Assembly (NCBI RefSeq): GCF_001042595.1
Contig: NZ_AP012326.1
Coordinates: 1,426,001 to 1,490,000, forward strand
Direction of reading: 5' to 3'
Source of the DNA: Bifidobacterium dentium JCM 1195 = DSM 20436
Lineage (GTDB): Bacteria > Actinomycetota > Actinomycetes > Actinomycetales > Bifidobacteriaceae
Length of the DNA stretch: 64,000 nucleotides
The notes beneath the pieces were generated by a model. That model ran no database searches and had not been told where the DNA came from. It saw nothing but the letters and a program-made list of their open reading frames with translations. This document shows positions 39,974 through 53,152 of this stretch, piece by piece. A program made the position numbers and the translations under genes. Within the stretch, counting starts at the first letter, position 1. Every line of letters begins with the position of its first letter.

Positions 39974-40031
39974 ATTAGCATAGGATCAGTTGTTTTTCCA
40001 CGGCTTTCGAGCCATGACATCAAGGATTGAT

Positions 40032-41513
40032 ATGGCACAGGAACATTTCGATATCGCGATTATCGGCGGCGGTCCGGGCGGCTATTCCACGGCGTTACGT
40101 GCCGCGGAGCTCGGCAAATCGGTGGTGCTGATCGAACGCGACGCCACACTGGGCGGCACCTGCCTGAATCGAGGTTGCATTCCTTCGAAGACGCTACTCA
40201 CCGCCACGCATGCCGTGGAGAATATGCGTCACGCCAAGGCGATGGGTATCAACGTGTCAGTGGAGAGCATTGATTTCGGCAAACTGCGCACGTTCCGCAC
40301 GCAGACCGTGGACACCATGACCAAGGGATTGGCGGGATTGCTGGCGCATCGCGGCGTCACCATCGTACGCGGAGAGGCCGTAATGCAGCCTTGCGGAAGC
40401 GTACATGTCACGCCGGTCGAAGGTCTTGGCCACATATTGCGATTCGTGAAGGCAGGCGTCGGCGAACCTATCGATGGCGAACTGGAGATCGTTGCCGAAG
40501 ACATCGTGATCGCCACCGGTTCACGGCCGTCGCCGCTGCCGGACAATCCATTCGCCGGCGCATTGATAGATTCCACACAGGCATTGGAACTGGATACCTT
40601 CCCTTCAAGCGCTGTGATCATCGGTGCCGGAGCCGTGGCGCTGGAATTCGCCTCCATGTGGCGTACGGCCGGCTGCGACGTGACGTTGCTGATTCGCAAA
40701 GACCGGGTGCTCTCCGCATGGGAGCGCCGCACGTCGGCGACGTTGACTCGCGAGCTGAAGCGGCGTGGCGTGAACATCATCACGCACAGCCATGTGACCC
40801 ATGTGGAAACCGGTGCCAATCTGGGCGCGACCGTGCACTATACGAGGGAAGGATCCGAAGCGGACATGAGCGCCTACGGCGAGGTCGTACTCGCCGCCAT
40901 TGGACGCATACCGAATACCGACGCAGACTGGTTCGAGGCCTGCAAGCTGGAACGTGACGCCCGGGGATTTATCGGCATCGATGCATTTGGCCGCACCAAT
41001 CTCGACCATGTGTGGGCTTTGGGTGACATCACCTCCGGCCATTCCTTGGCGCACCGTGCCTTTGAGCAGGGCATCGTCATCGCGGAGAAGATCGCCGGGC
41101 TCGATCCGAAACCGGTTGACGACGACACGATTCCGCAAGTCGTATTCTCCTTCCCCGAAGCGGCATGCGTGGGCTTGAGCCTTGATGAGGCACGGGCACG
41201 GAAGGACGTGGTCAATGCCCAGGAAACCGTGTATCCGATGCTGTCGAATTCACGTATGCTGATGAGCGGCTCGGGCGGGTCGCTATCCATTGTCAGCGGT
41301 GCCTATGCGGACAATCCCGAGGTGCCGCTGGTGCTGGGCGCACATATCGTAAGTCCCATCGCCAGCGATCTGATCGCGGAGGCCGAGCAGTTGGTGGGCA
41401 ATCATGTGCCATTGCATGATGCGGCCCGCCTGATTCACCCTCATCCGACATTCAGCGAAACGTTCGGCGAAGCGTTGCTCAAGGCGGATGGCAGGCCTCT
41501 TCATACCCGCTGA
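40032..41513 (+). CDS. lpd: Dihydrolipoamide dehydrogenase-like flavoprotein
   Basis: The FAD motif IIGGGPGGYSTALRAAELG is at the N-terminus, the redox pair in GGTCLNRGCIPSKTLL near 45, the NAD motif VIIGAGAVALEFASMW near 197, FAD contact DHVWALGDITSG near 325, and the C-terminal catalytic His-Glu in LIHPHPTFSETFGEAL near 470. 493 residues. AAGGA precedes the ATG at 40032. No lipoyl acyltransferase or E1 gene is nearby, and bifidobacteria are not known for a pyruvate dehydrogenase complex, so its partner is unclear (inference). Confidence 0.93.
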   Translation: MAQEHFDIAIIGGGPGGYSTALRAAELGKSVVLIERDATLGGTCLNRGCIPSKTLLTATHAVENMRHAKAMGINVSVESIDFGKLRTFRTQTVDTMTKGLAGLLAHRGVTIVRGEAVMQPCGSVHVTPVEGLGHILRFVKAGVGEPIDGELEIVAEDIVIATGSRPSPLPDNPFAGALIDSTQALELDTFPSSAVIIGAGAVALEFASMWRTAGCDVTLLIRKDRVLSAWERRTSATLTRELKRRGVNIITHSHVTHVETGANLGATVHYTREGSEADMSAYGEVVLAAIGRIPNTDADWFEACKLERDARGFIGIDAFGRTNLDHVWALGDITSGHSLAHRAFEQGIVIAEKIAGLDPKPVDDDTIPQVVFSFPEAACVGLSLDEARARKDVVNAQETVYPMLSNSRMLMSGSGGSLSIVSGAYADNPEVPLVLGAHIVSPIASDLIAEAEQLVGNHVPLHDAARLIHPHPTFSETFGEALLKADGRPLHTR

Positions 41514-41549
41514 CCGGCGTGGGAGGGCCGGCGGCCCCGCAACCGGTGC

Positions 41550-41578
41550 TTACACTACGGCATAGCACCTGATAGACT
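41550..41578 (+). promoter_or_regulatory. Sigma-70-type promoter of the DUF4191 gene
   Basis: TTACAC (41550-41555) and TAGACT (41573-41578) are separated by 17 bases and lie about 45 bases upstream of the DUF4191 start. The prediction is from sequence only. Confidence 0.5.
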
Positions 41579-41621
41579 ACTGTTCCAGTGTGTTCAACCA
41601 CGTAACCAAGTGAGGAAATTG

Positions 41622-42404
41622 ATGGCAGACAAAGAAGAGCCAAAGAAGAAGCAGAACACAATCAAACAGATCATTCAGATCTTCAAATACACCTACTCGG
41701 AAGACAAGACACTCCCCTGGCTGTGCGGAAGCGTGTTCGTGGCACCGGTCATCGTGTTCATCGTGCTTGGCATCGTGTTCAAATGGTCGGTTATCGGCTG
41801 GATCACCTCAATGATCCTTGCCATCATGATCGGCCTGCTGTTCGCCACCATGATGCTCACCAATCGTGCCGACAAGGTCGGCTATGCCAAGCTCGAAGGG
41901 CGTCCCGGCGCCGCCATCAGCGTTCTCGGCAACGTCAGCAAGGCGGGTTTCAACTTCCCGCAGGAGCCGGTGTGGGTCGATCCGAAGACCAAGGATGCCA
42001 TTTGGCGTGGCACCGGCTATAACGGCATCTACCTGCTTGGCGAAGGCGATTACGGCCGTGTGACGCGCGCCATGGATCGCCAGGAGCACAACATCAAGGG
42101 CGTGACCGCCGGTTCCGAAATCCCGGTCTATCGAATCTGCGTAGGCAAGGGGCCGAAGCAGGTCAGCCTGAAGAATCTGCGCAAGACCGTGCTCAAGTGC
42201 AAGTCCTATGAGCCGACGCATCACAAGAACAAGCTGATTGCGGCCATCCATCCGAAGCGTCGCTTCATGCTCACCAGGACCGAATTGAATGTTCTGAACG
42301 AACGTCTGCGTACTTTGCAGATGAAGAACGGCATGAACATCCCGAAGGGCATCGATCCGACGCGCCCACAGAGGATCAGCCGTCGCGCCATGCGTGGCCG
42401 CTGA
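41622..42404 (+). CDS. DUF4191 membrane protein
   Basis: The protein has 260 residues. After a Lys-rich start (KEEPKKKQNTIKQI) there are two adjacent membrane helices (residues about 35-80: GSVFVAPVIVFIVLGIVF and ITSMILAIMIGLLFATMM), then a cytoplasmic domain with KLEGRPGAAISVLG and KGVTAGSEIPVYRICVGKGP. This fits actinobacterial DUF4191, of unknown function, often encoded next to lipoate or glutamine synthetase genes; glnA follows here. GAGGAAA precedes the ATG. Confidence 0.85.
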   Translation: MADKEEPKKKQNTIKQIIQIFKYTYSEDKTLPWLCGSVFVAPVIVFIVLGIVFKWSVIGWITSMILAIMIGLLFATMMLTNRADKVGYAKLEGRPGAAISVLGNVSKAGFNFPQEPVWVDPKTKDAIWRGTGYNGIYLLGEGDYGRVTRAMDRQEHNIKGVTAGSEIPVYRICVGKGPKQVSLKNLRKTVLKCKSYEPTHHKNKLIAAIHPKRRFMLTRTELNVLNERLRTLQMKNGMNIPKGIDPTRPQRISRRAMRGR

Positions 42405-42430
42405 CGGTACATGCATGCGAACGCACTAGG

Positions 42431-42464
42431 AATCCCCGATCTGATTCGTCAGATCGGGGATTTT
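42431..42464 (+). terminator. Intrinsic terminator after the DUF4191 gene
   Basis: A 13-14 bp stem (AATCCCCGATCTGA with its complement) with a TTCG tetraloop is followed by TTTT. It separates this transcript from glnA. Confidence 0.9.
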
Positions 42465-42690
42465 CAATTGTTGCGTCGCTTCATCGTCCCAGCCGTTCGA
42501 TCCGTCCATAACATGAACGGATCCCCACCGTTGCATTTCGTCCCGCGAAACGTCGCAACCCCTATTTTTCGCGCAATCATGGAGGGAATACGTCATCTCG
42601 AAACATTCTCGTAACCCAAGTGGCGAGTGTGTGAAACGCGTTTTTCTAGACTAATAGCCTGTAAGTTACTTATTCGAAAGGAGCGGTCCC

Positions 42691-44127
42691 GTGACTGCAC
42701 TCGAAACCAAGGCTGATGCTGAGGCCCTTATCAATAAGGAAGGCGTTGAATACGTCTCCGTTCGCTTCACCGATCTGATCGGCGTTCAGCAGCACTTCAC
42801 TGTGCCGGCAAGCGAGTTCCTGAAGGATGCCTTCACCGACGGCATGCCGTTCGATGGTTCCTCCGTGGAAGGCTTCCAGGCCATCAACGAGTCCGACATG
42901 AAGCTGGTGCCGGATGTTTCCACCGCATTCATCGACCCGTTCCGCAAGCACAAGACCCTCGACGTGGCCTTCTCCATCGTCGACCCGCTGACCGATGAGC
43001 CGTACTCCCGCGACCCGCGTCAGGTCGCCGGCAAGGCCGAGGCTTACCTGAAGTCCACCGGCATCGCCGATACCGCCTCCTTCGCTCCGGAAGCCGAGTT
43101 CTTCATCTTCGACAAGGTGCGCTTCGAGAACAGCATGCAGCGCTCCTTCTACGAGGTGGACTCCGTTGAGGCTCCGTGGAACACCGGTGTTGACACCGAA
43201 GACGACGGCACCCCGAACATTGCGTTCAAGAACCGCGTCAAGCGCGGCTACTTCCCGGTTCCGCCGATTGACCACACCCAGGATCTGCGCGACGACATGG
43301 TCGCCAACCTGCAGAAGGTCGGTCTGATCCTCGAGCGTTCCCATCACGAGGTCGCCGGCGCAGGCCAGCAGGAGATCAACTACCGCTTCAACTCCCTGCA
43401 GCACGCAGGCGATGACCTGATGAAGTACAAGTACGTCGTTCACGAGACCGCCGCTCTGGCAGGCAAGGCCGCAACCTTCATGCCGAAGCCGATCGCAGGC
43501 GACAACGGTACCGGCATGCACTGCCACCAGTCCCTGTGGAAGGACGGCAAGCCGCTGTTCTACGATGAGAAGAACTATGGTGGCCTGTCTGACATCGCCC
43601 GCTGGTACATCGGCGGCCTGATCAAGCACTCCTCCTCCGTGCTGGCCTTCACCAACCCGTCCCTGAACTCCTACCACCGTCTGGTGCCGGGCTTCGAGGC
43701 GCCGGTCAACCTGGTGTACTCCGCTCGTAACCGTTCCGCCGCCATCCGTATCCCGCTGGCCGGCACCTCCCCGGCTGCGAAGCGTATCGAGTTCCGCGCT
43801 CCGGATCCGTCCTGCAACCCGTTCCTCGCCTTCTCCGCCCAGCTGATGGCAGGCCTGGACGGCATCCTGAACCACATCGAGCCGCCGGAGCCGGTCGACA
43901 AGGATCTGTACGAGCTGCCGCCGGAAGAGCACGCTGGCATCAAGCAGGTGCCGAGCTCCTTGGCCGAGGCCATGGACGCTCTGGAAGAGGATCACGACTT
44001 CCTCACCGCCGGCGACGTCTTCACCGATGATCTGATCGAGACCTGGCTGGGCATCAAGCGTGGCGAGATCGATCAGGCTCGTCTGGCCCCGACTCCGCTG
44101 GAGTACGAGCTGTATTTCCACATCTGA
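42691..44127 (+). CDS. glnA: Glutamine synthetase type I
   Basis: It makes glutamine from glutamate, ammonia and ATP as a dodecamer. 478 residues with [18 protein letters not shown] near 52, metal ligands in [11 protein letters not shown] near 130, the ATP region [15 protein letters not shown] near 270 and the glutamate flap [13 protein letters not shown]. The adenylylation loop [11 protein letters not shown] near 405 keeps the target Tyr, so control by a GlnE-type enzyme is likely. It starts with GTG at 42691 after GAAAGGAG. Codon choice is highly biased, as for strongly expressed genes. Confidence 0.98.
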
Positions 44128-44185
44128 TAGTCATTAGGGCAAAACGTAGTCGTCAGTAGGCTTTTCGCACTGTTCAGAGTGACCT

Positions 44186-44207
44186 ACTGCACCTATACTG
44201 CACCTAT
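44186..44207 (+). repeat. Two exact tandem copies of an 11-base unit
   Basis: ACTGCACCTAT occurs twice in a row just after glnA. It lies next to a decayed excisionase gene, so it may be an integrase/excisionase arm-type site of a lost element. That role is inference. Confidence 0.5.
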
Positions 44208-44215
44208 CGGAACAC

Positions 44216-44261
44216 GAGAAACCCCACTTCGTTCACAATCGGACGCGAGTGGGGTTTTCTC
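44216..44261. terminator. Bidirectional intrinsic terminator after glnA
   Basis: GAGAAACCCCACT and AGTGGGGTTTTCTC form the stem, with T-rich flanks on both strands. It ends glnA on the plus strand and could also stop transcription from the accessory region on the minus strand. Confidence 0.8.
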
Positions 44262-44425
44262 ATGCCCGCCATGCAGGCAGCGAGATGAGCCATTCATCCA
44301 AATCCGCGCCGTCGGATGCGCACGGTCGGCGTGTAGGCGTAGCAGGCGATGAGGTCGCCGCGGCGCACGGCCTGACGGATGGTCTCTCCGTCAAACCGCA
44401 CAAGGCGGCCGCCTCCGGCATCCCC
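44260..44425 (-). pseudogene. Excisionase / HTH DNA-binding protein remnant
   Basis: Reading the minus strand, one frame gives VRFDGETIRQAVRRGDLIA and then …TPTVRIRR before a stop at 44294-44296. A neighbouring frame continues with ADLDEWLISLPAWRA. Joined, they match the ending of short MerR-like excisionases (recognition helix, wing, then DLDEW-SLP). A one-base shift therefore broke the gene, and its 5' part is replaced by AT-rich sequence beyond about 44430. Together with the integrase remnant at 47.8-48.3 kb it marks an integrated element that is no longer mobile. Confidence 0.6.
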
Positions 44426-44568
44426 AACGATACCAGTGTCACTATTGTATGGAAGAATTTAGATTCAACAGAATCATCAATTCTGAATAACAGTTCATCA
44501 CCTCGAGAAGCTGTCACAAAATTAGTCACAATCGTTCCCTCGCAAAAAGCAAATTCTCAATCGTCGTA

Positions 44569-45744
44569 TCAGCCGTTTATAAGATGATTGGAACGTTGAA
44601 TGATTTCGGCTTCATTATTACCAGAAATGAGGAATTTTCTGTCAGAATCAACAGAATTATGGGCGATACCTTTTTTCCTCCCCACAGATTCTAAAACTGC
44701 CCAATCCGGAATTTCTTTTTCCTTTGGCCAGTTCAATCCAGCAGTTTCTAGTAGCATGCCATATTGGGATGATCGTGTGATATTTGTATTCGCATCGACA
44801 AGGCCAAGTTCCAATAAAAAGTTAGCTTTACTCTGATCTATGCCATAGGCGGCTATCAGCTCTTGCTTAATTAGCCCTCCTCCCCTACGTGCCGCCATTT
44901 CCCCAAATATGAAATCACCAGTTTCATTCTTATAGAATTCAATATGCATCACATTTGGGACCGTCTGATCTTTGAAAGATTTAATTAATTGCTTTGTCAG
45001 TCGGAGCAGTTCAGAGTAGTCGGCGCTGTTCTCGTCTAACATTACGGAACCAGTATTTTGTTTCTCGAAATCTAGCGGTGGGACAAAATATCGTGATGGC
45101 GAAATCAGGATCAAACCAGAATTGATATAGACCACATCCACATGGTAGACAGAACCAGAGCAGTATTCTTCTAGATAATACTGGTTTGAATGTACGCTTC
45201 TGACAATTTCCGGCTTAGCGGCTAACGCAGATAAGTCGTCTTTCGAATGCAGTATCGTAATGCCTGCAGACCCTGCACCCCATCGAGGCTTGAGAACAAC
45301 CGTCTCCCAACGATCGAACGCCGCAATAATATCTCCAAAGCATTTGCAAGAGGTATAGGGAATAATCTTTAACCCAGCATTAAGGGCTGACTGCTTCATC
45401 GTAACTTTATCTCGACAGCTCAACGCTAATTCATACTTTAAACCGGGAATTTCAAATAAACTTCTCGCCTCCGCAACCCTCAGCACATCTTCTTCCGAGC
45501 CAGAAATTATCCTATCTGGTCTAAATTTCTTAACAACATCAAAGAATTCTGCAGTAGCGCTATCAGAGGAATAATTAGAAACTTCAATTTCTTTGATGAC
45601 GGAATTCGGCCAACTATGGCGTATGGCTCGATCGTTCGATGTTAAGACTATAACTTCTAAACAATCAAAGCATTCTTGGACTTCTTCAATCCATTTTGGA
45701 TAATTCGAGAAAGATTTGGGTTGTTGTAACAATAGTACTTTCAT
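44569..45744 (-). CDS. ATP-grasp ligase (carboxylate-amine ligase type)
   Basis: The protein has 391 residues, is AT-rich and complete. N-terminal preATP-grasp domain (MKVLLLQQPKSFSNYPKW; later DRIISGSEEDVLRVAEARS). ATP-binding lysine segment VVLKPRWGAGSAGITIL near 175, hinge YYLEEYCSGSVYHVDVVY near 212, metal-binding strand VMHIEFYKNETGDFIFGEMA near 287 followed by ARRGGG. Start ATG at 45742-45744 after AGGGGGA. Enzymes of this kind join a carboxylate to an amine, as in dipeptide antibiotics (BacD) or peptide modification. It is the last gene of an AT-rich minus-strand unit with an MFS transporter. Base composition unlike the flanks signals transfer. Confidence 0.85.
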   Translation of the reverse strand: MKVLLLQQPKSFSNYPKWIEEVQECFDCLEVIVLTSNDRAIRHSWPNSVIKEIEVSNYSSDSATAEFFDVVKKFRPDRIISGSEEDVLRVAEARSLFEIPGLKYELALSCRDKVTMKQSALNAGLKIIPYTSCKCFGDIIAAFDRWETVVLKPRWGAGSAGITILHSKDDLSALAAKPEIVRSVHSNQYYLEEYCSGSVYHVDVVYINSGLILISPSRYFVPPLDFEKQNTGSVMLDENSADYSELLRLTKQLIKSFKDQTVPNVMHIEFYKNETGDFIFGEMAARRGGGLIKQELIAAYGIDQSKANFLLELGLVDANTNITRSSQYGMLLETAGLNWPKEKEIPDWAVLESVGRKKGIAHNSVDSDRKFLISGNNEAEIIQRSNHLING

Positions 45745-45821
45745 ATCATTTCCCCCTGTTGTATTCGCCAAAGCATGAGACATTAACTTTGACCTCATCA
45801 TTAAAATATTGCGTCTTCACT

Positions 45822-46487
45822 TCAATTGGACAACCATATGAATACGGATACGTGCTTCCCTCGGGTTAAATCCGCTAAAAGTGAAGACACTTCGTTCCTA
45901 TGGGAAGAACGAGTTGCATTCAGAAAGTATGTGGGACAAGCTTCTGGACATGCATGCGGAGAGTTTGCTCGAAATGAGTTCCAAACGGTCTCTTGCCGTA
46001 ACATTTTTTCATATTCCGCACTAATAGCAAGTAATTCTTCATCAACTGCATTAAATCTGCCGTGATAGTGGAAAACAGAATCGAACTGCTAATCCAACCC
46101 GTCATTAAAGAGAAGAACAGGGCAGCCAACTTGTTCGCGTCCATTTCGAGTTACATCGATAACAATGTTGTCAAGGTTGAGGCATTTCGAAGCTGCTTTA
46201 GTCAACGCTGCTAAGGAAAGTTTATCCAATAGGCCATATTGTCCTCCATCCCTTTCTTGCAGCGAACAGATGGAGTTATCGCTGATACCACATAGCGGTG
46301 ATGAAACTGCGGAGTTACTTCCACCGCTTTCAGAACACCAGGAAGCAGAGAGACTGTCATTTCTCTTGATATCGGGAAGCCGCTCTACCGCTTTTCTTCC
46401 TTTTTTATCCTTAGCAGCCTCGCTATTGGGATGTTCGAGGGCATTTGTCAATATCTTCTCAAGTATGAATATTTTTTGTGGGTGCAT
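45822..46487 (-). pseudogene. Interrupted gene with condensation-domain-like segments (one in-frame TAG)
   Basis: GAGGAG precedes the ATG at 46485-46487, so translation starts well. The first 132 codons end at a TAG (46089-46091). The same frame then stays open for 88 more codons to a TGA at 45822. Before the TAG, LSLAALTKAASKC then IVIDVTRNGRE looks like the LxxAL…HGRE region of NRPS condensation/epimerisation domains. After it, SVFHYHGRFNAVDEE looks like their FNYLGRF region. The roughly 70 residues normally between are missing. This suggests a decayed or drastically shortened condensation-like protein; a short real protein or peptide precursor of 132 residues cannot be excluded. It lies 12 bases behind the MFS gene and 77 before the ATP-grasp gene. 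Confidence 0.45.
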
Positions 46488-46499
46488 GTGACTCCTCTT

Positions 46500-47738
46500 T
46501 TAGTGGCAGATAGCCTTTTTTCCATGTTTGTCAATTTGGTTAGCAGCGATTGCCGGCATTATTCCTACCAACGCTAATGTGCACCAGTACCAAGGTGTCA
46601 TTCCTGCAGGGCGTAGTGCCGGAACAATCCAACCGCCAAGGAATGAACCTACTGATTCACCAATAGCTGCAATTATCAGCCGATAATTCAGAATGTCCAC
46701 CAAAGGTTTATCTGGCTGTACTTCTACTAGAGCAATATTGATTAATGGTGCGTAGATACATTCTGCAATGGAAATAACAATCAATGATACAATGCATATC
46801 CACCAGTAGGACGAAACTCCACAGGCAAATATTGCAAAGGAAATGCCATAGACTCCCAAGCTTTTGATTATGAATGAGGTAGCATTATGCCCATTAGTCA
46901 TACCTCGTGAAATAAATTTACTCACTGGCATTTGCAGTGCTATGACTGACAAGGCATCAATAGAATAGAACAATCCTCTTATGACTGGGCTATCGGATAA
47001 CGAATAGAATTCCAATGCCATTCCTGCAAAAAGCTGACCGTTCATTATACTGCCCACAAACACCGCCAGGATAGCAAGAATAGTGCCAGAACTTTTCACT
47101 GAGTCTTTAATGGTCTTCACGATAGAAGAGGTATTTTGCTTACTACTTTCTTCACTGCGTATAAAGACATGATGAGCTAGCACAATCGGAGCTAGTAAAG
47201 CAGAAAAAACATAGAGTCCAATAATGACTATAAAAAAGAGTGTCTGCCCGAAAGATTTATATATATAATTCGAGGCCAGAGGACCAATTGCGGATCCAAG
47301 ATTGGCAGTCATTGTCACTAAAGAAAATAAAGTAGCCTGAGATTTTTTATCCTTTACCATAGCAAGTATATGCCATCTTAGGGCAAAATTAACCAGTGAG
47401 AGTCCAAGTCCCAGCAAAGCTAAATCCAGAAAAAGGAAGCCGACAAAACTCTTCATTGCCGACTGTAGTAGCAAAAGCGAAAAAACTATGAATCCGAAAC
47501 CAGTCTCAGTGAGAGATAAGGTTGATGAGCGTTCAATCAAATTGCCTATAAAAATAGTACTACCCCTAGAAAAAAGAGATAAAATTCCAAGTGCTAATCC
47601 AACATATAGTGATGACGTTGCAGAAACCTGACCAGTAAGGATAACCGAAAAAAGGGAAAAAAGCCCGCTATATGCAGCACTATTTAAAAAATAATTAACT
47701 GATATGGAGTCATTCTTGATATTGCTCAGCTTTTCCAC
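46500..47738 (-). CDS. MFS transporter (probable efflux type)
   Basis: The protein has 412 residues with about 12 hydrophobic helices. It starts with GTG at 47736-47738. The loop between helices 2 and 3 (RGSTIFIGNLIERSS) fits a weak MFS motif A, and a cytoplasmic charged loop (IRSEESSKQNTSSIVKTIKD) separates the two halves. It ends with a short basic tail. Strongly AT-rich, with codon use unlike the chromosome. It is the first gene of the unit with the interrupted condensation-like gene and the ATP-grasp ligase, so it may export the product or give self-protection, as BacE does for bacilysin. Substrate unknown. Confidence 0.85.
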   Translation of the reverse strand: MEKLSNIKNDSISVNYFLNSAAYSGLFSLFSVILTGQVSATSSLYVGLALGILSLFSRGSTIFIGNLIERSSTLSLTETGFGFIVFSLLLLQSAMKSFVGFLFLDLALLGLGLSLVNFALRWHILAMVKDKKSQATLFSLVTMTANLGSAIGPLASNYIYKSFGQTLFFIVIIGLYVFSALLAPIVLAHHVFIRSEESSKQNTSSIVKTIKDSVKSSGTILAILAVFVGSIMNGQLFAGMALEFYSLSDSPVIRGLFYSIDALSVIALQMPVSKFISRGMTNGHNATSFIIKSLGVYGISFAIFACGVSSYWWICIVSLIVISIAECIYAPLINIALVEVQPDKPLVDILNYRLIIAAIGESVGSFLGGWIVPALRPAGMTPWYWCTLALVGIMPAIAANQIDKHGKKAICH

Positions 47739-47761
47739 ATGAACAGACTTTCTTTTATGCT

Positions 47762-48306
47762 TTACAAATAATGTTCTTTCATGCTAGTCGTTATATGGAA
47801 ATCGTTCGTTATTGCGTCCAGATATGGTAGTGAGTGCCCGGTTTCTTGCACACTTGGGGTTTTGCCTGTTTGCGACACGGTTGTCAGTTCACTGTGTCCC
47901 ATGATGGCTGTGCTGGTCACGTCGTCCAGTCGGCCACAGTCCATGCGTAGTTCGTCCCAGATGCGGGACTTGAGCCTCGACTTGCAGATGTCATCCAGCC
48001 AATGATCGAGCCATTCGGCCACGGTGGGCGGCTTCACGTAGCCGACGCGGTGGGTGCAGTCGAACTCGGCGAGCTTGTCCTTCAACCGGTTTTCGGCCAA
48101 TGTGCATGTGCGTCCGAAACCGGATACGCGGTGGTCCCCGCCGGTCAGCGGGTCGGTTACCGTCGCATATGCCCGGAATCCCTTTGGCGTGGCCGATATG
48201 CTATCCGTGCCGCGCGGTCGGCGTCCATGAGTATCGATAGTTTCATGTCGCCGGCCGAGTCGACCAGTGTGAGTGTGCATCTGGGCATGCGTTCCGTTTC
48301 GTTCAT
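47762..48306 (-). pseudogene. Tyrosine-type integrase remnant
   Basis: One minus-strand frame carries an arm-binding-like domain (ATPKGFRAYATVTDPLTGG; FGRTCTLAENRLKDKLAEF) and the start of the core-binding domain (PPTVAEWLDHWLDDICKSRL). It then jumps to a piece resembling the C-terminal catalytic box (TAIMGHSELTTVSQTG), so most of the catalytic domain is deleted. A 49-codon frame at 48157-48306 (MNETERMPRCTLTLVDSAGD) overlaps in another phase and may be the original N-terminus cut off by a frameshift. GC-rich, unlike the AT-rich genes beside it. Confidence 0.65.
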
Positions 48307-48421
48307 GCCCATGGGACTATGCCAGCCGAACGTAGGTGTACTTATCTCTGCCTTTCATAGCCGAAAATAGTCAAAAATGGCAATCTATCCAACAACATGA
48401 AACGGAATCTAAAACGTTGAA

Positions 48422-48823
48422 ATGCAGCCATCTTCGGCATTTCCCCAACGTTTTTCTGCGGTACCTAGGAGGTATTTCGACTTCGTTTCTGGATTATGGC
48501 AGATCCATCCGTTCCGCGAGGGGAACACCAGAACGACCGCGGTGTTCACAATCATATATCTCAGACGTCTCGGATTCACGGTCGTCAACAAGCCGTTCGC
48601 CTCGAACGCCCGGCTTTTCCGCGACGCCCTCGCGTTGGACAACACCTCCGACCCCGATTTCAAGGATCCGGCACCTTTGAACCGGTTCATAGAGAAGACG
48701 CTTTTCGACTCGTCCATTACGTTGGAAAGACTGAGGGACTCCGCCCCACCCAATCAGACACGGACGGCTCTCCCCTGTTTTGATCCGAACCAGTCGGAGG
48801 ACAACGGCCGGTGTCAGATATGA
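48422..48823 (+). pseudogene. Fic family protein, C-terminal fragment
   Basis: The Fic motif IHPFREGNTRTTAVF (HPFxxGNxR) lies near residue 29 of the frame, followed by FIIYLRRLGFTVVNKPF-like helices and FRDALALDN. Fic enzymes transfer AMP or similar groups to proteins and are often toxins. The N-terminal half of the Fic fold, including the flap that binds the target, is absent, and no ribosome site lies before the first ATG. This is therefore a truncated relic. A complete family member has about 200 residues. Confidence 0.6.
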
Positions 48824-48889
48824 ACAGGTAGTCGATAACGCCCTGAACCTCTCATTCAGTCCGTCGATGATTTCGTCTACCCAAAGCAG

Positions 48890-49145
48890 CCGCCAATCGT
48901 TGTTGTGCGTGTTGATGCCCTGCTCGATTTCAGCCAGATCGGACACGAAATAGATACCCTGCCGACGTTCGGCCATGGAAAAGCCGACTCGACCATGCGT
49001 TGCAGGAACATTTTCATATCGTCGTAGAAACCGTTGAGACTATAGAAAACGCATGGCCCTTTCAACTGATTAAGACAGATTTTCGACACCACCTCGCTGA
49101 TTTCCTACAGCGTGCCTGTGCCACCTGTTGGCATGAAATAAATGC
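48890..49145 (-). pseudogene. LOG family (TIGR00730-like) remnant
   Basis: Translation gives MPTGGTGTL, a TAG, then EISEVVSKICLNQLKGPC and FYSLNGFYDDMKMFLQRM. A frameshift follows and then RRQGIYFVSDLAEIEQGI. The order and wording match the second half of the intact LOG-family gene at 57823-58362 (FPGGTGTLEEVSEVVSKICL…RQRGIYFADDL). The 5' half is missing. At least one nonsense mutation and one frameshift make it dead. Confidence 0.75.
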
Positions 49146-49169
49146 GCTAAAGTCTTATATTCCATACCT

Positions 49170-49319
49170 ATGAGGACTTTAAACTATCTGTTGACTGCAT
49201 CTGTGTTAGAGATAGTATCAAAATATGAAAGCAATCAAAGACTAACTCTAAGTACCATTGAAGATGCACTTACCTTCTGCGGAGACGGGCTCAGCCCCAG
49301 AATAGCGAAACCCATATAA
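49170..49319 (+). CDS. Possible small protein of unknown function
   Basis: A 49-codon frame, AT-rich, begins MRTLNYLLTASVLEIVSKYE and ends 32 bases before HicB. It occupies the place where a HicA toxin would be expected but does not look like HicA: no double-stranded RNA-binding-like strand or catalytic His is seen. No clear ribosome site. It may be a fragment of a larger lost gene. Confidence 0.3.
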   Translation: MRTLNYLLTASVLEIVSKYESNQRLTLSTIEDALTFCGDGLSPRIAKPI

Positions 49320-49351
49320 AGTCAAGACGACCTCATCAAAAGGAACACCAA

Positions 49352-49642
49352 ATGAAGCTTACGTATCCGATAGTTCTCATCCCATTCAGAGACGGCAGTG
49401 GCGGCTATACTGTCGAGATTCCGGATCTTCCCGGGTGCGTCACCGAAGGACGCGACCTGGCCGAAGCGTTGTTCATGGCCCAGGACGCAGCCAGCGGATG
49501 GGTACTCACGGAACTCAAAGACGGCAAACCAATCCCGACAACCAGCAACCTGACCGAGATCAAACCCGATAATCCGGACGCGATGGTGCGCATCGTCACG
49601 CTCGACATGGACGCATACGCAACCAAATACGGCAGGGAATAA
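49352..49642 (+). CDS. HicB-like antitoxin, without a HicA partner
   Basis: The protein has 96 residues. The partial RNase H-like HicB fold is clear: YPIVLIPFRDGSGGYTVEIP, DLPGCVTEGRDLAEALFMAQ and ASGWVLTELKDGKPIPTTS. It stops at LDMDAYATKYGRE, just where the C-terminal DNA-binding module would begin in long HicB proteins, so it is either the short form or cut. AAAGGA precedes the ATG. No hicA is seen on either side within the window. It may be a relic or an orphan antitoxin. Confidence 0.75.
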   Translation: MKLTYPIVLIPFRDGSGGYTVEIPDLPGCVTEGRDLAEALFMAQDAASGWVLTELKDGKPIPTTSNLTEIKPDNPDAMVRIVTLDMDAYATKYGRE

Positions 49643-49798
49643 TCCACTTGATAGTGGATCCACAAAGACATCGCCGAAACTCGCCATCATAGTGTTTCCT
49701 CAAGTTTCCTTACATGCGAAAGGCCTATACTGTCCGTCAAGCGCAACGCGATGAACGATTCGGTAACTACGGAACAGCGATTCCCGTAGCGCGAGTAA

Positions 49799-50470
49799 TC
49801 AAGCCGACCACATGCGGCATAAGTCCACGAAAGCAGACAGTCGCTCCCGTCCAGCCATGGAAGTAATCGAACTGGGAGCACTGCGAGACGACCGAGACTC
49901 AGCCCCGGCACACTCGCATGCAAGTCCCACCGGCAAGGATGGGAGCGTGATTTCATCTCCAACCGCAACAGATGACGCCACGGACGAAGCCCAGTCGAAT
50001 AACGCGCATGATGGCGAGACACACGCTGCATAAAGAAGCGTTCCGATAATGCGTGCCATAGCGATGAAGTCGAGTCGCTCCGCAGCATATGCGTATTCAT
50101 AACTAGCATAGAGATATGTGACGCATTCCGAGGAATCCCAGTCGGGCTCGTAGGCATCGAACAGCCTTTGCATGGAATCATCGTCAGCCGACTGCGCGAT
50201 GAACAGACGTGGACACGAGGAATCTGGGTCAGAGGTGATGAGTCAAGAAGAAACTCACCGGTACACGGTGTGCACTTTGTCCGATGGAAGGTTCTTGTGC
50301 AACATGGTTTTGCTACCGGCCATGGTTTCAACGTCATGCGAAACCGCATTGCCATGAAAGTCGCTGTGATTCACCCTTGTGATGAAACCCGCACCATCGC
50401 ATTCGACTACCACACGCGCAAACCTGCGAAATTCCGGATTGTCAACATCTTCAATATCGATCTCGCTCAC
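49799..50470 (-). pseudogene. Unrecognised gene broken by two TGA stops
   Basis: One minus-strand frame reads 71 codons (begins VSEIDIEDVDNPEF) to a TGA at 50255-50257. Four codons later another TGA follows. The same frame is then open for about 150 codons (PDSSCPRLFIAQSADDDSMQ, LYASYEYAYAAERLDFIAMA), ending at 49799. The compositional continuity across the stops suggests one decayed gene. No domain is recognised. The second part has a hydrophobic stretch near IIGTLLYAACV. The rest of 49643-50660 shows only a small hairpin (49642-49658) and a terminator. Confidence 0.35.
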
Positions 50471-50542
50471 ACCACCATGATTGCATCCCCATCACAAATC
50501 TTCCCAATAAACAGCTCAATGAGTAGAAACTCTTGCGATACG

Positions 50543-50583
50543 AAAAGTGGCGTGGGATTCCATTCGTCAGAATCTCACGCCAC
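50543..50583 (-). terminator. Intrinsic terminator of the esterase / sugar porter unit
   Basis: On the minus strand GTGGCGTGAGATTC and GAATCCCACGCCAC form a 14-bp stem with one mismatch and a 9-base loop, followed by TTTT. It lies 85 bases after the stop of the esterase gene. Confidence 0.85.
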
Positions 50584-50667
50584 ATTATTCGAGCCGTCAA
50601 TCCAGCCGTTGCAAAGCGGTCATGAATCAACGGATCACAGGAAGCCATTGCTCTCCGTCCGCTTGAT

Positions 50668-51702
50668 TCAGATCCGCGCGTATGCGAAGTCGTGGATCAT
50701 GCGGAGCGTTTCGCGGCTTTCGTCGAGCCAGGACATGCACACCGGGAATACGTGTCCGAGTGATTGGCCTTTGTGGGTATACCAGTCATGCAGTTCCACA
50801 TCGTGCCCTGCGGCAACGAGCGCGGTAGCCAGTTTCAATGATTCGACGTGGATGAAGTCGTCACTGCTGGTGTTGATGAGGATCGGCGGGAATTCCACTT
50901 CCTCAGCCATGGTCGCAAGATTCGTCAGCTCTGTTTTTTTGGCGTGTAACTTCGCGAAGAACGTTGGCGCGATATGTTCGACGATTGAAGTTTCCTTGGA
51001 TTCTTCAATAGTCTTTCGCGTCCCCGGCTCGCACAGCGCCAGATAGGGCGTCAGATCAGCCAATGGCGAAACGAACGCGCTACCAGCAACGGTAAGCCCC
51101 GACTGGCCGACACCCATTGCTTTGGCAAATTTGCCGGATCGTTCGATTGCCGTCATATAGAGCGCGAGCGTGCCGCCCGCCGAATCTCCCGTCAGGAACA
51201 CGTTGTTCTGGTCGATGGGATATTCGTGTCGATGTATCCGGATCCAACGAAATGCCGCCGCGACGTCCTCCAATTGTCCGAGAAAATCGGTTTCCGGTGC
51301 GGGCCGGTAGTTCACGGAGAACACTGCGAATCCCAGTTTGGCGAGGTTTGTGCAGAAATTGCGGTTGAGCTCCTTGTATGCGTAGACGAATCCGCCTCCG
51401 TGGATGTCGATGTACACAGGAGTGGTCTTGCCTCCCCTGACTACACTGTCGTGGGGCAGGTACAGGTCAAGTCTGTGTGCACGGGTTCCGTCATCAACGT
51501 ATGGCACGTCTTCGAAGACGTCGATTCCTTCGGGATCATGCCAGTAGTCGGTTCGCGATAGGTCCCCCCTGGCAAAGTCGAGACGTGAACGCAATACCGC
51601 TTCGGCAAGGTCGGGCTCGACTTCGGCAAGGTCCTCGTCGAGCGCGGTCCAGCTGAGGAACAGCTTACGCTCCTCGTCGGTGATCACAATGTTGTTGAGC
51701 AC
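50668..51702 (-). CDS. Alpha/beta hydrolase, acetyl-esterase (HSL) type
   Basis: This cytoplasmic enzyme has 344 residues. The oxyanion motif DIHGGGFVYAYKELN lies near 98. The nucleophile Ser is in FLTGDSAGGTLALY near 168; the catalytic Asp is likely in NTSSDDFIHVESL near 277 and the His in the GHVFPV area near 315. It starts with GTG at 51700-51702, one base after the stop of the sugar porter gene. Co-expression with a sugar porter suggests it removes acetyl or similar groups from imported sugars (inference). Confidence 0.9.
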   Translation of the reverse strand: MLNNIVITDEERKLFLSWTALDEDLAEVEPDLAEAVLRSRLDFARGDLSRTDYWHDPEGIDVFEDVPYVDDGTRAHRLDLYLPHDSVVRGGKTTPVYIDIHGGGFVYAYKELNRNFCTNLAKLGFAVFSVNYRPAPETDFLGQLEDVAAAFRWIRIHRHEYPIDQNNVFLTGDSAGGTLALYMTAIERSGKFAKAMGVGQSGLTVAGSAFVSPLADLTPYLALCEPGTRKTIEESKETSIVEHIAPTFFAKLHAKKTELTNLATMAEEVEFPPILINTSSDDFIHVESLKLATALVAAGHDVELHDWYTHKGQSLGHVFPVCMSWLDESRETLRMIHDFAYARI

Positions 51703-51703
51703 G

Positions 51704-53152
51704 TCATTCCGCCTTCATGTCTTCGAGCGCTACGCCAGCGGTCTCCGGCAGACCTTTGGTGACGAACAGGAAACTGATGGCCGCGAACACGCCGTACATC
51801 AAATACGCGCCGCTGAGTCCGACGCCGTGCTGCAGGGATGGGAACGAAGTGGATACGATGAAGTTGCCGATCCAGTTGAATGCGGTAGCCACCGCCATAC
51901 CCATGGCACGGATGCTGTTCGGGAAGATCTCTCCAAGCACGACCCACATGGCGGGCCCCCATGTACCGCAGAACGTCAGGTAGAACAGGTAGACGGCAAT
52001 GAGCGTGATCGGAGCCCACGCATCGTTGAGATGCAGGCCGGAGGCATCCATCGTGGCGTGGGCGAAGCCGAATGCTGCGACGAACAGGAATATTGCCATT
52101 CCTGCAGAACCGAAGGCGAGAAGCTTACGGCGTCCGATACGGTCGATGAGAACCATGGAGATGACCATCGGAATGAACGCTGCGAACGTGCGGATCATGG
52201 CGATGTCAAGCGCCTGCTGTTCCGAGAATCCCATGGAACGCCACAGGCTGGAATCGTAGTAGAGAATCACGTTGACGCCGCAGAATTGCTGGAAGAGAGC
52301 CACGAGGACGCCAATCCAGACAACCTTCTTCAAACCGAAAGTGCGTCCGAGCAGATCGGAAAGCTTCGGAGAGGTCTCGTTGCCGATGGATTCGCGGATC
52401 TGACGTACCTTATCTTGCGGATTCTGCGTGCCATTGATGCGCTTGAGTAGTTCGGCGGCCTCGTCGTAATGGCCTTTCATGACCATGTAGCGCGGGGTTT
52501 CCGGCAGTCGGAGTGCAGCCACCAGCATGATGATGGCGGGAACGAACATGACCATCAGCATCCAACGCCATGTGGAGAGGCCGAACCAGAGCGTATTGTC
52601 GGCGCCGCCTGAGCTTTTGGCGAGCAGGTTGTTGGCGATGGTGGATCCCAACATGCCGATACCGACCGCGAACTGCTGGAAGCTGGCAAGGAAACCGCGC
52701 ATCTTGGTTGGCGATACTTCCGCGATGTAGGTAGGGCCGACGACCGATGCGAGGCCCACACCGAGACCGCCAATGAGTCGGAAGGCTATGAAGGGCCAGA
52801 CGGCAGGGGCCAGAGCGGAACCGAGGGAGCTGATAATGAACAGGATAGCCGCTGTGAGCAGCGCTTTGACACGACCGTAGCGGTCAGCGAATTTTCCGGC
52901 GAACCATGCACCCAATACGCATCCGGCCAATGCACCGGAAACGGATAGGCCGCTCATGAAATCGTTGAGGCCGAATCCGGACTTGCTGCCTGCGATGGAA
53001 TCGACCGCGCCGTTGATTACGGACGTGTCGTAGCCGAACAGCAGTCCGCCCGTAGCTCCTGCGAGGCATACGAGGATGATACGGCGTTTAATGGTCGGGG
53101 CGATGACCTCAACTGCTCCGCCTGCCTGCTCTGGCAGATTCGAAGATGACAT
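51704..53152 (-). CDS. MFS sugar porter
   Basis: The protein has 482 residues and 12 helices. Sugar-porter signatures are GGLLFGYDTSVINGAVDSI near 33, GGLGVGLASVVGPTYIAEVS near 125, the central PETPRYMVMKG near 215 and DRIGRRKLLAFG near 320. It imports hexose or pentose with protons. The gene is divergent from an AraC-type regulator over a 200-base region with paired TGTGAT/ATCACA dyads, and is coupled to an esterase gene downstream. Confidence 0.93.
   Translation of the reverse strand: MSSSNLPEQAGGAVEVIAPTIKRRIILVCLAGATGGLLFGYDTSVINGAVDSIAGSKSGFGLNDFMSGLSVSGALAGCVLGAWFAGKFADRYGRVKALLTAAILFIISSLGSALAPAVWPFIAFRLIGGLGVGLASVVGPTYIAEVSPTKMRGFLASFQQFAVGIGMLGSTIANNLLAKSSGGADNTLWFGLSTWRWMLMVMFVPAIIMLVAALRLPETPRYMVMKGHYDEAAELLKRINGTQNPQDKVRQIRESIGNETSPKLSDLLGRTFGLKKVVWIGVLVALFQQFCGVNVILYYDSSLWRSMGFSEQQALDIAMIRTFAAFIPMVISMVLIDRIGRRKLLAFGSAGMAIFLFVAAFGFAHATMDASGLHLNDAWAPITLIAVYLFYLTFCGTWGPAMWVVLGEIFPNSIRAMGMAVATAFNWIGNFIVSTSFPSLQHGVGLSGAYLMYGVFAAISFLFVTKGLPETAGVALEDMKAE

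What the first reader, a model, noticed from the sequence alone, without database searches (positions are those of the whole stretch)
44430..47760. AT-rich island: MFS transporter, condensation-like protein and ATP-grasp ligase in one unit
The three genes run in one direction with short gaps, are far more AT-rich than both flanks, and lie between a broken excisionase and a broken integrase. An ATP-grasp ligase beside an MFS exporter recalls BacD/BacE of bacilysin, where a dipeptide is made and exported. A middle gene with condensation-like segments points to amide or ester chemistry on amino acids. I do not recognise a known bifidobacterial natural product of this layout. The function is inference.
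Basis: partly seen in the sequence, partly recalled or inferred. Interest (0 to 1): 0.7.

Follow-up and report, generated by a model that had tools for sequence, protein, structure and literature searches.

The report
Mobile dipeptide-ligase and exporter gene pair
Two intact genes in this Bifidobacterium, an enzyme that probably joins two amino acids and a pump that probably exports the product, form a small unit that seems to have moved recently between bifidobacterial species; the third gene between them is a dead remnant.

Summary
The AT-rich island is real. It holds two intact genes: an ATP-grasp ligase (44569-45744, minus) whose closest solved relative by sequence and fold is RizA, an L-amino-acid (dipeptide) ligase, and an MFS transporter (46500-47738, minus). 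The middle "condensation-like gene" is a remnant: its catalytic half is missing and the rest is frameshifted. Remnants of an integrase and a small DNA-binding (excisionase-like) gene flank the island; open relatives of both flank other cargo beside glnA in other bifidobacteria, so the island is cargo of a glnA-linked integrative element. The pair, without the middle gene, sits at another site in four more genomes, where its dS is 0-0.013 against 0.08-0.22 for glnA: recent transfer. Window against L007, dN/dS is 0.075 (ligase) and 0.13 (MFS). In one genome that slot holds a 34%-identical ligase with an MFS of no clear similarity, plus a 91-base scar of the first cassette. Best reading: a stripped-down BacD/BacE-like unit that makes and exports a small dipeptide or amide from ordinary metabolites. 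Substrates, product and transport direction are not shown. New variant of a known kind.

The parts
44419..47871 (-). AT-rich cassette; DNA shared (82-84% identity) with another chromosomal site in G036, G072, G081 and G112, where 28 bases stand in place of 45772-46516
44569..45744 (-). ATP-grasp ligase, 391 aa, RizA-type L-amino-acid-ligase-like; intact; GGGGG just upstream of the start
45775..46487 (-). remnant of a condensation-domain (PF00668-like) protein: catalytic half missing, rest frameshifted
46500..47738 (-). MFS transporter, 412 aa; intact (GTG start); only weak resemblance to efflux models
44235..44430 (-). excisionase-like remnant beside glnA; 44307-44427 is 75% identical over 124 columns to DNA of the element in G072
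   Evidence: related frame in L123 is HTH_17
47892..48280 (-). tyrosine-integrase remnant with internal deletion; 77% identity to an open 435-aa Phage_integrase protein in G072
   Evidence: the remnant itself hits a PHROG integrase only at E 0.029 and no integrase in Pfam
42691..44127 (+). glnA (glutamine synthetase), landmark next to which the element sits

Best explanation
The island is cargo of a decayed glnA-linked integrative element. It is a two-gene unit in which a RizA/BacD-type ATP-grasp ligase uses ATP to activate the carboxylate of one amino acid and joins it to the amine of another, and the neighbouring MFS protein pumps the dipeptide (or similar small amide) out. No gene for an unusual precursor is left, so the substrates are probably ordinary metabolites. 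A condensation protein once stood between the two genes; it is dead here and absent from the copies in four other genomes. Shown: homology, predicted fold, conserved catalytic positions, pairing, decay of the third gene, mobility, low dN/dS. Inferred: dipeptide product, export direction, ecological role.
Confidence: 0.6

Rival explanations
1. A detoxification or self-protection pair: the ligase blocks a toxic amino-acid analogue met in the gut by joining it to an amino acid, and the MFS expels it. It would spread as a resistance-like cassette.
For: No precursor-making genes in the cassette; recent spread between genomes of different species; MFS weakly resembles multidrug efflux; a self-detoxification role for a BacD homologue is proposed in PMC3684760 (passages).
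Against: A condensation-protein remnant between the genes points to a biosynthetic origin; no resistance model was met at its cut-off in the NCBIfam scans of ligase and MFS.
Confidence: 0.17
2. The ligase acts on a non-amino-acid partner (nucleoside, amine or sugar acid), as NikS-annotated relatives may; the MFS exports that conjugate.
For: NikS-annotated proteins are 26-27% identical to the relative P0016; ATP-grasp relatives lie in varied clusters.
Against: RizA is the closest solved relative by sequence and fold; no other enzyme gene is left in the cassette.
Confidence: 0.13
3. In the window species the unit is a fossil of a larger pathway that needed the condensation protein, and makes nothing.
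For: Third gene dead; flanking element decayed; copies in B. moukalabense are broken.
Against: Ligase and MFS are open with low dN/dS, and the copies in G036, G072, G081 and G112 lack the condensation gene altogether yet stay open.
Confidence: 0.1

Closest known systems
RizA (L-amino acid ligase, PDB 4wd3; arginyl dipeptides, PMC9321006 passages)
   Same: ATP-grasp fold along most of the chain, ATP/Mg/catalytic positions, length
   Different: 22% identity in the structural alignment; positions of the second-substrate pocket differ (RizA T81/K83/S84 align with S/E/D here, S156/A158 with A/S); no PEP mutase in the genomes
BacD/BacE of bacilysin
   Same: ATP-grasp ligase and MFS exporter in one unit
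   Different: 15-16% identity in structural alignments; BacD model not met; no other intact gene in the cassette
HilD/HilE of Pantoea and others (PF13535 ligase + MFS; PMC3684760 passages)
   Same: same two protein classes in one operon; dipeptide and export proposed there too
   Different: Hil operon carries dioxygenases and other enzymes; none here
PnaB/PnaC of phosphonoalamides (PMC11867202, passages)
   Same: ATP-grasp dipeptide and tripeptide ligases in a cluster with transporters
   Different: PEP mutase family found in 0 of 8 genomes here

Membership tests
RizA/BacD-type L-amino-acid ligases (ATP-grasp) | closest homology and fold among solved proteins to an L-amino-acid ligase | tested here: met
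   RizA first by sequence, Foldseek and VIA; BacD and the B. licheniformis ligase rank below carbamoyl-phosphate synthetase in VIA
RizA/BacD-type L-amino-acid ligases (ATP-grasp) | conserved Lys pair and Glu/Glu/Arg of the ATP-Mg site (E-x12-E-x3-R) | tested here: met
   (15 of 15), aligned to RizA; the correspondence to BacD E311/E324/R328 is recalled
RizA/BacD-type L-amino-acid ligases (ATP-grasp) | forms a peptide bond between two L-amino acids | not testable with these tools
   no assay
Alanine-anticapsin ligase BacD | NCBIfam NF053745 cut-off 850 bits | tested here: not met
   26.7 bits
BacD/BacE-like ligase-exporter pair | MFS gene beside the ligase on the same strand | tested here: met
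   8 of 8 family genomes with strong ligase hits; remnant between them in G000 and G012, MFS frameshifted in G012
BacD/BacE-like ligase-exporter pair | MFS exports the ligase product | not testable with these tools
   only weak efflux-model matches
NRPS condensation domain (PF00668) | PF00668 above cut-off in the window protein | tested here: not met
   no hit for three window pieces; relative P0025 33.7 bits over cut-off 30.6
NRPS condensation domain (PF00668) | HHxxxD catalytic motif | tested here: not met
   absent in window frames and in L008/P0024; HHWACD in P0025
Phosphonopeptide pathways (rhizocticin, phosphonoalamide) | PEP mutase | tested here: not met
   0 of 8 genomes; the family rings in 11 of 14 control genomes
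glnA-linked integrative element | integrase and excisionase-like gene flanking cargo beside glnA | tested here: met
   remnants here; open Phage_integrase proteins and excisionase-like matches beside glnA in L122 and L123; L124 weaker (239-aa integrase frame; small gene matched by eye, HTH_17 26.5 bits under cut-off 27)

The most novel reading that the evidence does not exclude
Bifidobacteria of the human gut trade small interchangeable 'dipeptide factory' cassettes (one ligase, one exporter, different alleles in one slot), which make secreted dipeptides or amides for competition or signalling without NRPS or ribosomal precursors; such a class would escape searches keyed to NRPS, PKS and RiPP genes.
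Probability: 0.3. Interest if true: 0.8.

Novelty: new variant of a known kind. Interest (0 to 1): 0.52.

Why it matters
If true, several Bifidobacterium species share a mobile pathway for a secreted small peptide that two genes suffice to make. It can be tested directly by expressing one enzyme and deleting two genes, and it would add an NRPS-independent class to what is known of bifidobacterial natural products.

Tried and rejected
Considered and rejected: a working three-gene NRPS-like unit (middle gene broken); bacilysin; a phosphonate peptide; phage cargo (ligase query has no match to phages; viral-contig scans gave no confirmed relative).

Led nowhere: the host of P0016 (53% identity, the closest ligase outside the near-identical group) was not found in 396 phylum genomes or 396 order genomes. 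The model of the condensation relative P0025 is useless (pLDDT 30.7). Rfam at gathering cut-offs gave nothing for 40000-52000. Promoter/terminator scan no better than shuffles. The region just downstream of the ligase looks by eye like the start of another transporter gene, but Pfam gives no hit for the L008 frame; not claimed.

Rows dropped: of 21 of 189 genomes with E<=1e-3, 13 with E 4.5e-5 to 8e-4 were set aside as probably other ATP-grasp enzymes without being examined. The chimeric metagenome proteins P0010, P0014, P0020, P0023 and P0031 were not used as evidence. Of 90 plasmid records with a match, 12 were read, one each from 12 of 27 genus names, not at random; the Phaeobacter stretch was cut by the record end. 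Of the order-search loci L088-L093, only L089 and L090 had neighbours tested by Pfam.

Print check: searches showed no paper on such a pair in bifidobacteria, as far as titles and abstract starts in the listings tell. One search listed 15 of 15, 12 of 13, 15 of 7,698, 10 of 135. In one search two papers held both words: PMC4431377 seen in passages (unrelated), PMC8772736 seen only in the listing. PMC10161427 and PMC2922099 were seen in passages; the first reports muc-like clusters in three Bifidobacteriaceae strains, a different pathway.

Full report
What is there. The window lies at G000:C1:1426001-1490000 of a 2,635,669-base genome. I take it for Bifidobacterium dentium from genome length, which is recalled; B. 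moukalabense (L008, named) shares the same site. Inside the island GC is 40.5-42.7% per kb, against 49-63% elsewhere in the window (48-49% in the two windows over its edges): 6 of 127 one-kb windows are under 45%, all here. Two genes are intact on the minus strand: an MFS transporter (46500-47738) and an ATP-grasp protein (44569-45744).

The middle gene. Between them lie 755 bases with pieces in shifted frames. Relatives show what it was: P0025 (351 aa, a cluster of 144 sequences) meets the Pfam condensation cut-off with 33.7 bits and carries HHWACD. The window and B. moukalabense keep only the part after that motif (P0024, L008), and the window copy is frameshifted as well. P0029, a 132-residue open piece with the same end, stands for 132 sequences, which suggests the frameshift is not an error of one assembly. 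The window pieces themselves do not reach Pfam. A relative of this gene is found in 2 of 189 family genomes, G000 and G012.

The transporter. The MFS hits MFS_1 and only weakly efflux models, far below their cut-offs: TIGR00880 multidrug for the window copy, MdtH and EntS for the L007 copy. Direction of transport is not shown.

Pairing. A strong ligase hit (E<=5.4e-48) occurs in 8 of 189 family genomes, and in 8 of 8 an MFS gene lies just upstream on the same strand, with the remnant between them in G000 and G012 and the MFS itself frameshifted in G012. In G096 and G106 (type B) the ligase is 33-34% identical to this one, but the MFS shows no clear similarity to this MFS. This fits two separate pairings of a ligase with an MFS, though far divergence of one partner is not excluded. 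Of 12 plasmid loci read (one each from 12 genera, of 90 records), 7 have an annotated MFS within 5 kb: Vibrio, Priestia, Streptomyces, Klebsiella, Pantoea, Virgibacillus, Macrococcus; Sulfobacillus, Phaeobacter, Apilactobacillus, Paraburkholderia and Leisingera do not. No background rate was computed. Against strict coupling, a 41-42% relative of the MFS stands without a ligase nearby in G094, G096 and G064.

Mobility at glnA. The integrase remnant is 77% identical over 95 residues to a 435-aa protein in G072 with both Phage_integrase domains, and the excisionase-like remnant is 76% identical over 109 bases to DNA close by; both lie beside glnA there. G085 has the same layout with about 15 kb of other cargo between an open integrase and an HTH_17 gene; G090 looks alike but its integrase hit lies in a 239-aa frame. 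The window island sits in the cargo position.

Mobility elsewhere. In G094 that site is empty and TetR is whole. In the filled site a 291-base 3' piece of TetR, 96.6% identical to G094, lies on the far side of the cassette, while the whole TetR copy on the near side has a 3' end only 75% identical to G094. In G119, however, the TetR 3' end is closer to the near-side copy (87% against 79%), so which end is native is open. In G096 the slot between the same flanks holds the type-B pair together with a stretch that matches, 79% over 91 bases, DNA downstream of the ligase in L008 at the glnA site, and that is not found at the empty site in G094. This is best read as a scar of the type-A cassette, so type B probably replaced type A there. 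MFS and ligase dS among G036, G072, G081 and G112 is 0-0.013, while glnA dS is 0.078-0.217, the adjoining GH3 gene 0.036-0.132 and a GH3 gene further off 0.056-0.494. That points to recent transfer between species.

Selection. Window against L007: dN/dS 0.075 (ligase) and 0.134 (MFS), 390 and 412 codons. In L008 both genes are frameshifted, so that lineage is losing them.

How it most likely works. The ligase activates one amino acid with ATP and joins it to a second; the MFS exports the product. This is the BacD/BacE arrangement (PMC9147277, passages) and the one proposed for HilD/HilE (PMC3684760, passages). With no precursor genes in the cassette and a PEP mutase in 0 of 8 genomes searched, the substrates are probably ordinary metabolites. 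It is like, but not, the bacilysin system. The main rival is a detoxification pair.

Novelty. The parts are known. The stripped two-gene form in bifidobacteria, the swap of two different pairs in one slot, and the recent spread were not found in print in searches, which were read as listings. I file it as a new variant of a known kind.

Noticed in passing
window 48422-48823 (+): Fragment of a Fic/DOC-family protein (PF02661, 27.2 bits over cut-off 24), next to the integrase remnant.
   Followed up: no
window 49352-49642 (+): HicB-like antitoxin gene (Pfam E 7e-15; PHROG 497).
   Followed up: no
L123, L124 (beside glnA): glnA-linked integrative elements in other bifidobacteria carry about 15 kb of different cargo, including large proteins that by eye might be defence or helicase genes.
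   Followed up: partly
L089 8356-16493: Another genome of the same order has tandem ATP-grasp-like genes (the second without a Pfam hit) with a PEP mutase, TPP enzyme, aldehyde dehydrogenase and MFS: probably a phosphonate peptide cluster.
   Followed up: partly
L112 1267-8048 (Macrococcus plasmid, 16 kb): Small plasmid with MFS, two ATP-grasp ligases and an integrase close together, similar in plan to the bifidobacterial cassettes.
   Followed up: no
P0010, P0014, P0020, P0023, P0031: Proteins from public assemblies that fuse pieces of the ligase or condensation protein to unrelated sequence (Pfam or NCBIfam: HTH, chorismate synthase, MurJ-like, Csb2; P0014 unassigned): assembly chimeras or true junctions, not resolved.
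   Followed up: no
L008 11218-11511 and L007 11189-11435: Downstream of the ligase an open stretch is shared between the two sites (73% over 250 columns) and looks by eye like the start of a second transporter; no Pfam hit for the L008 frame.
   Followed up: partly
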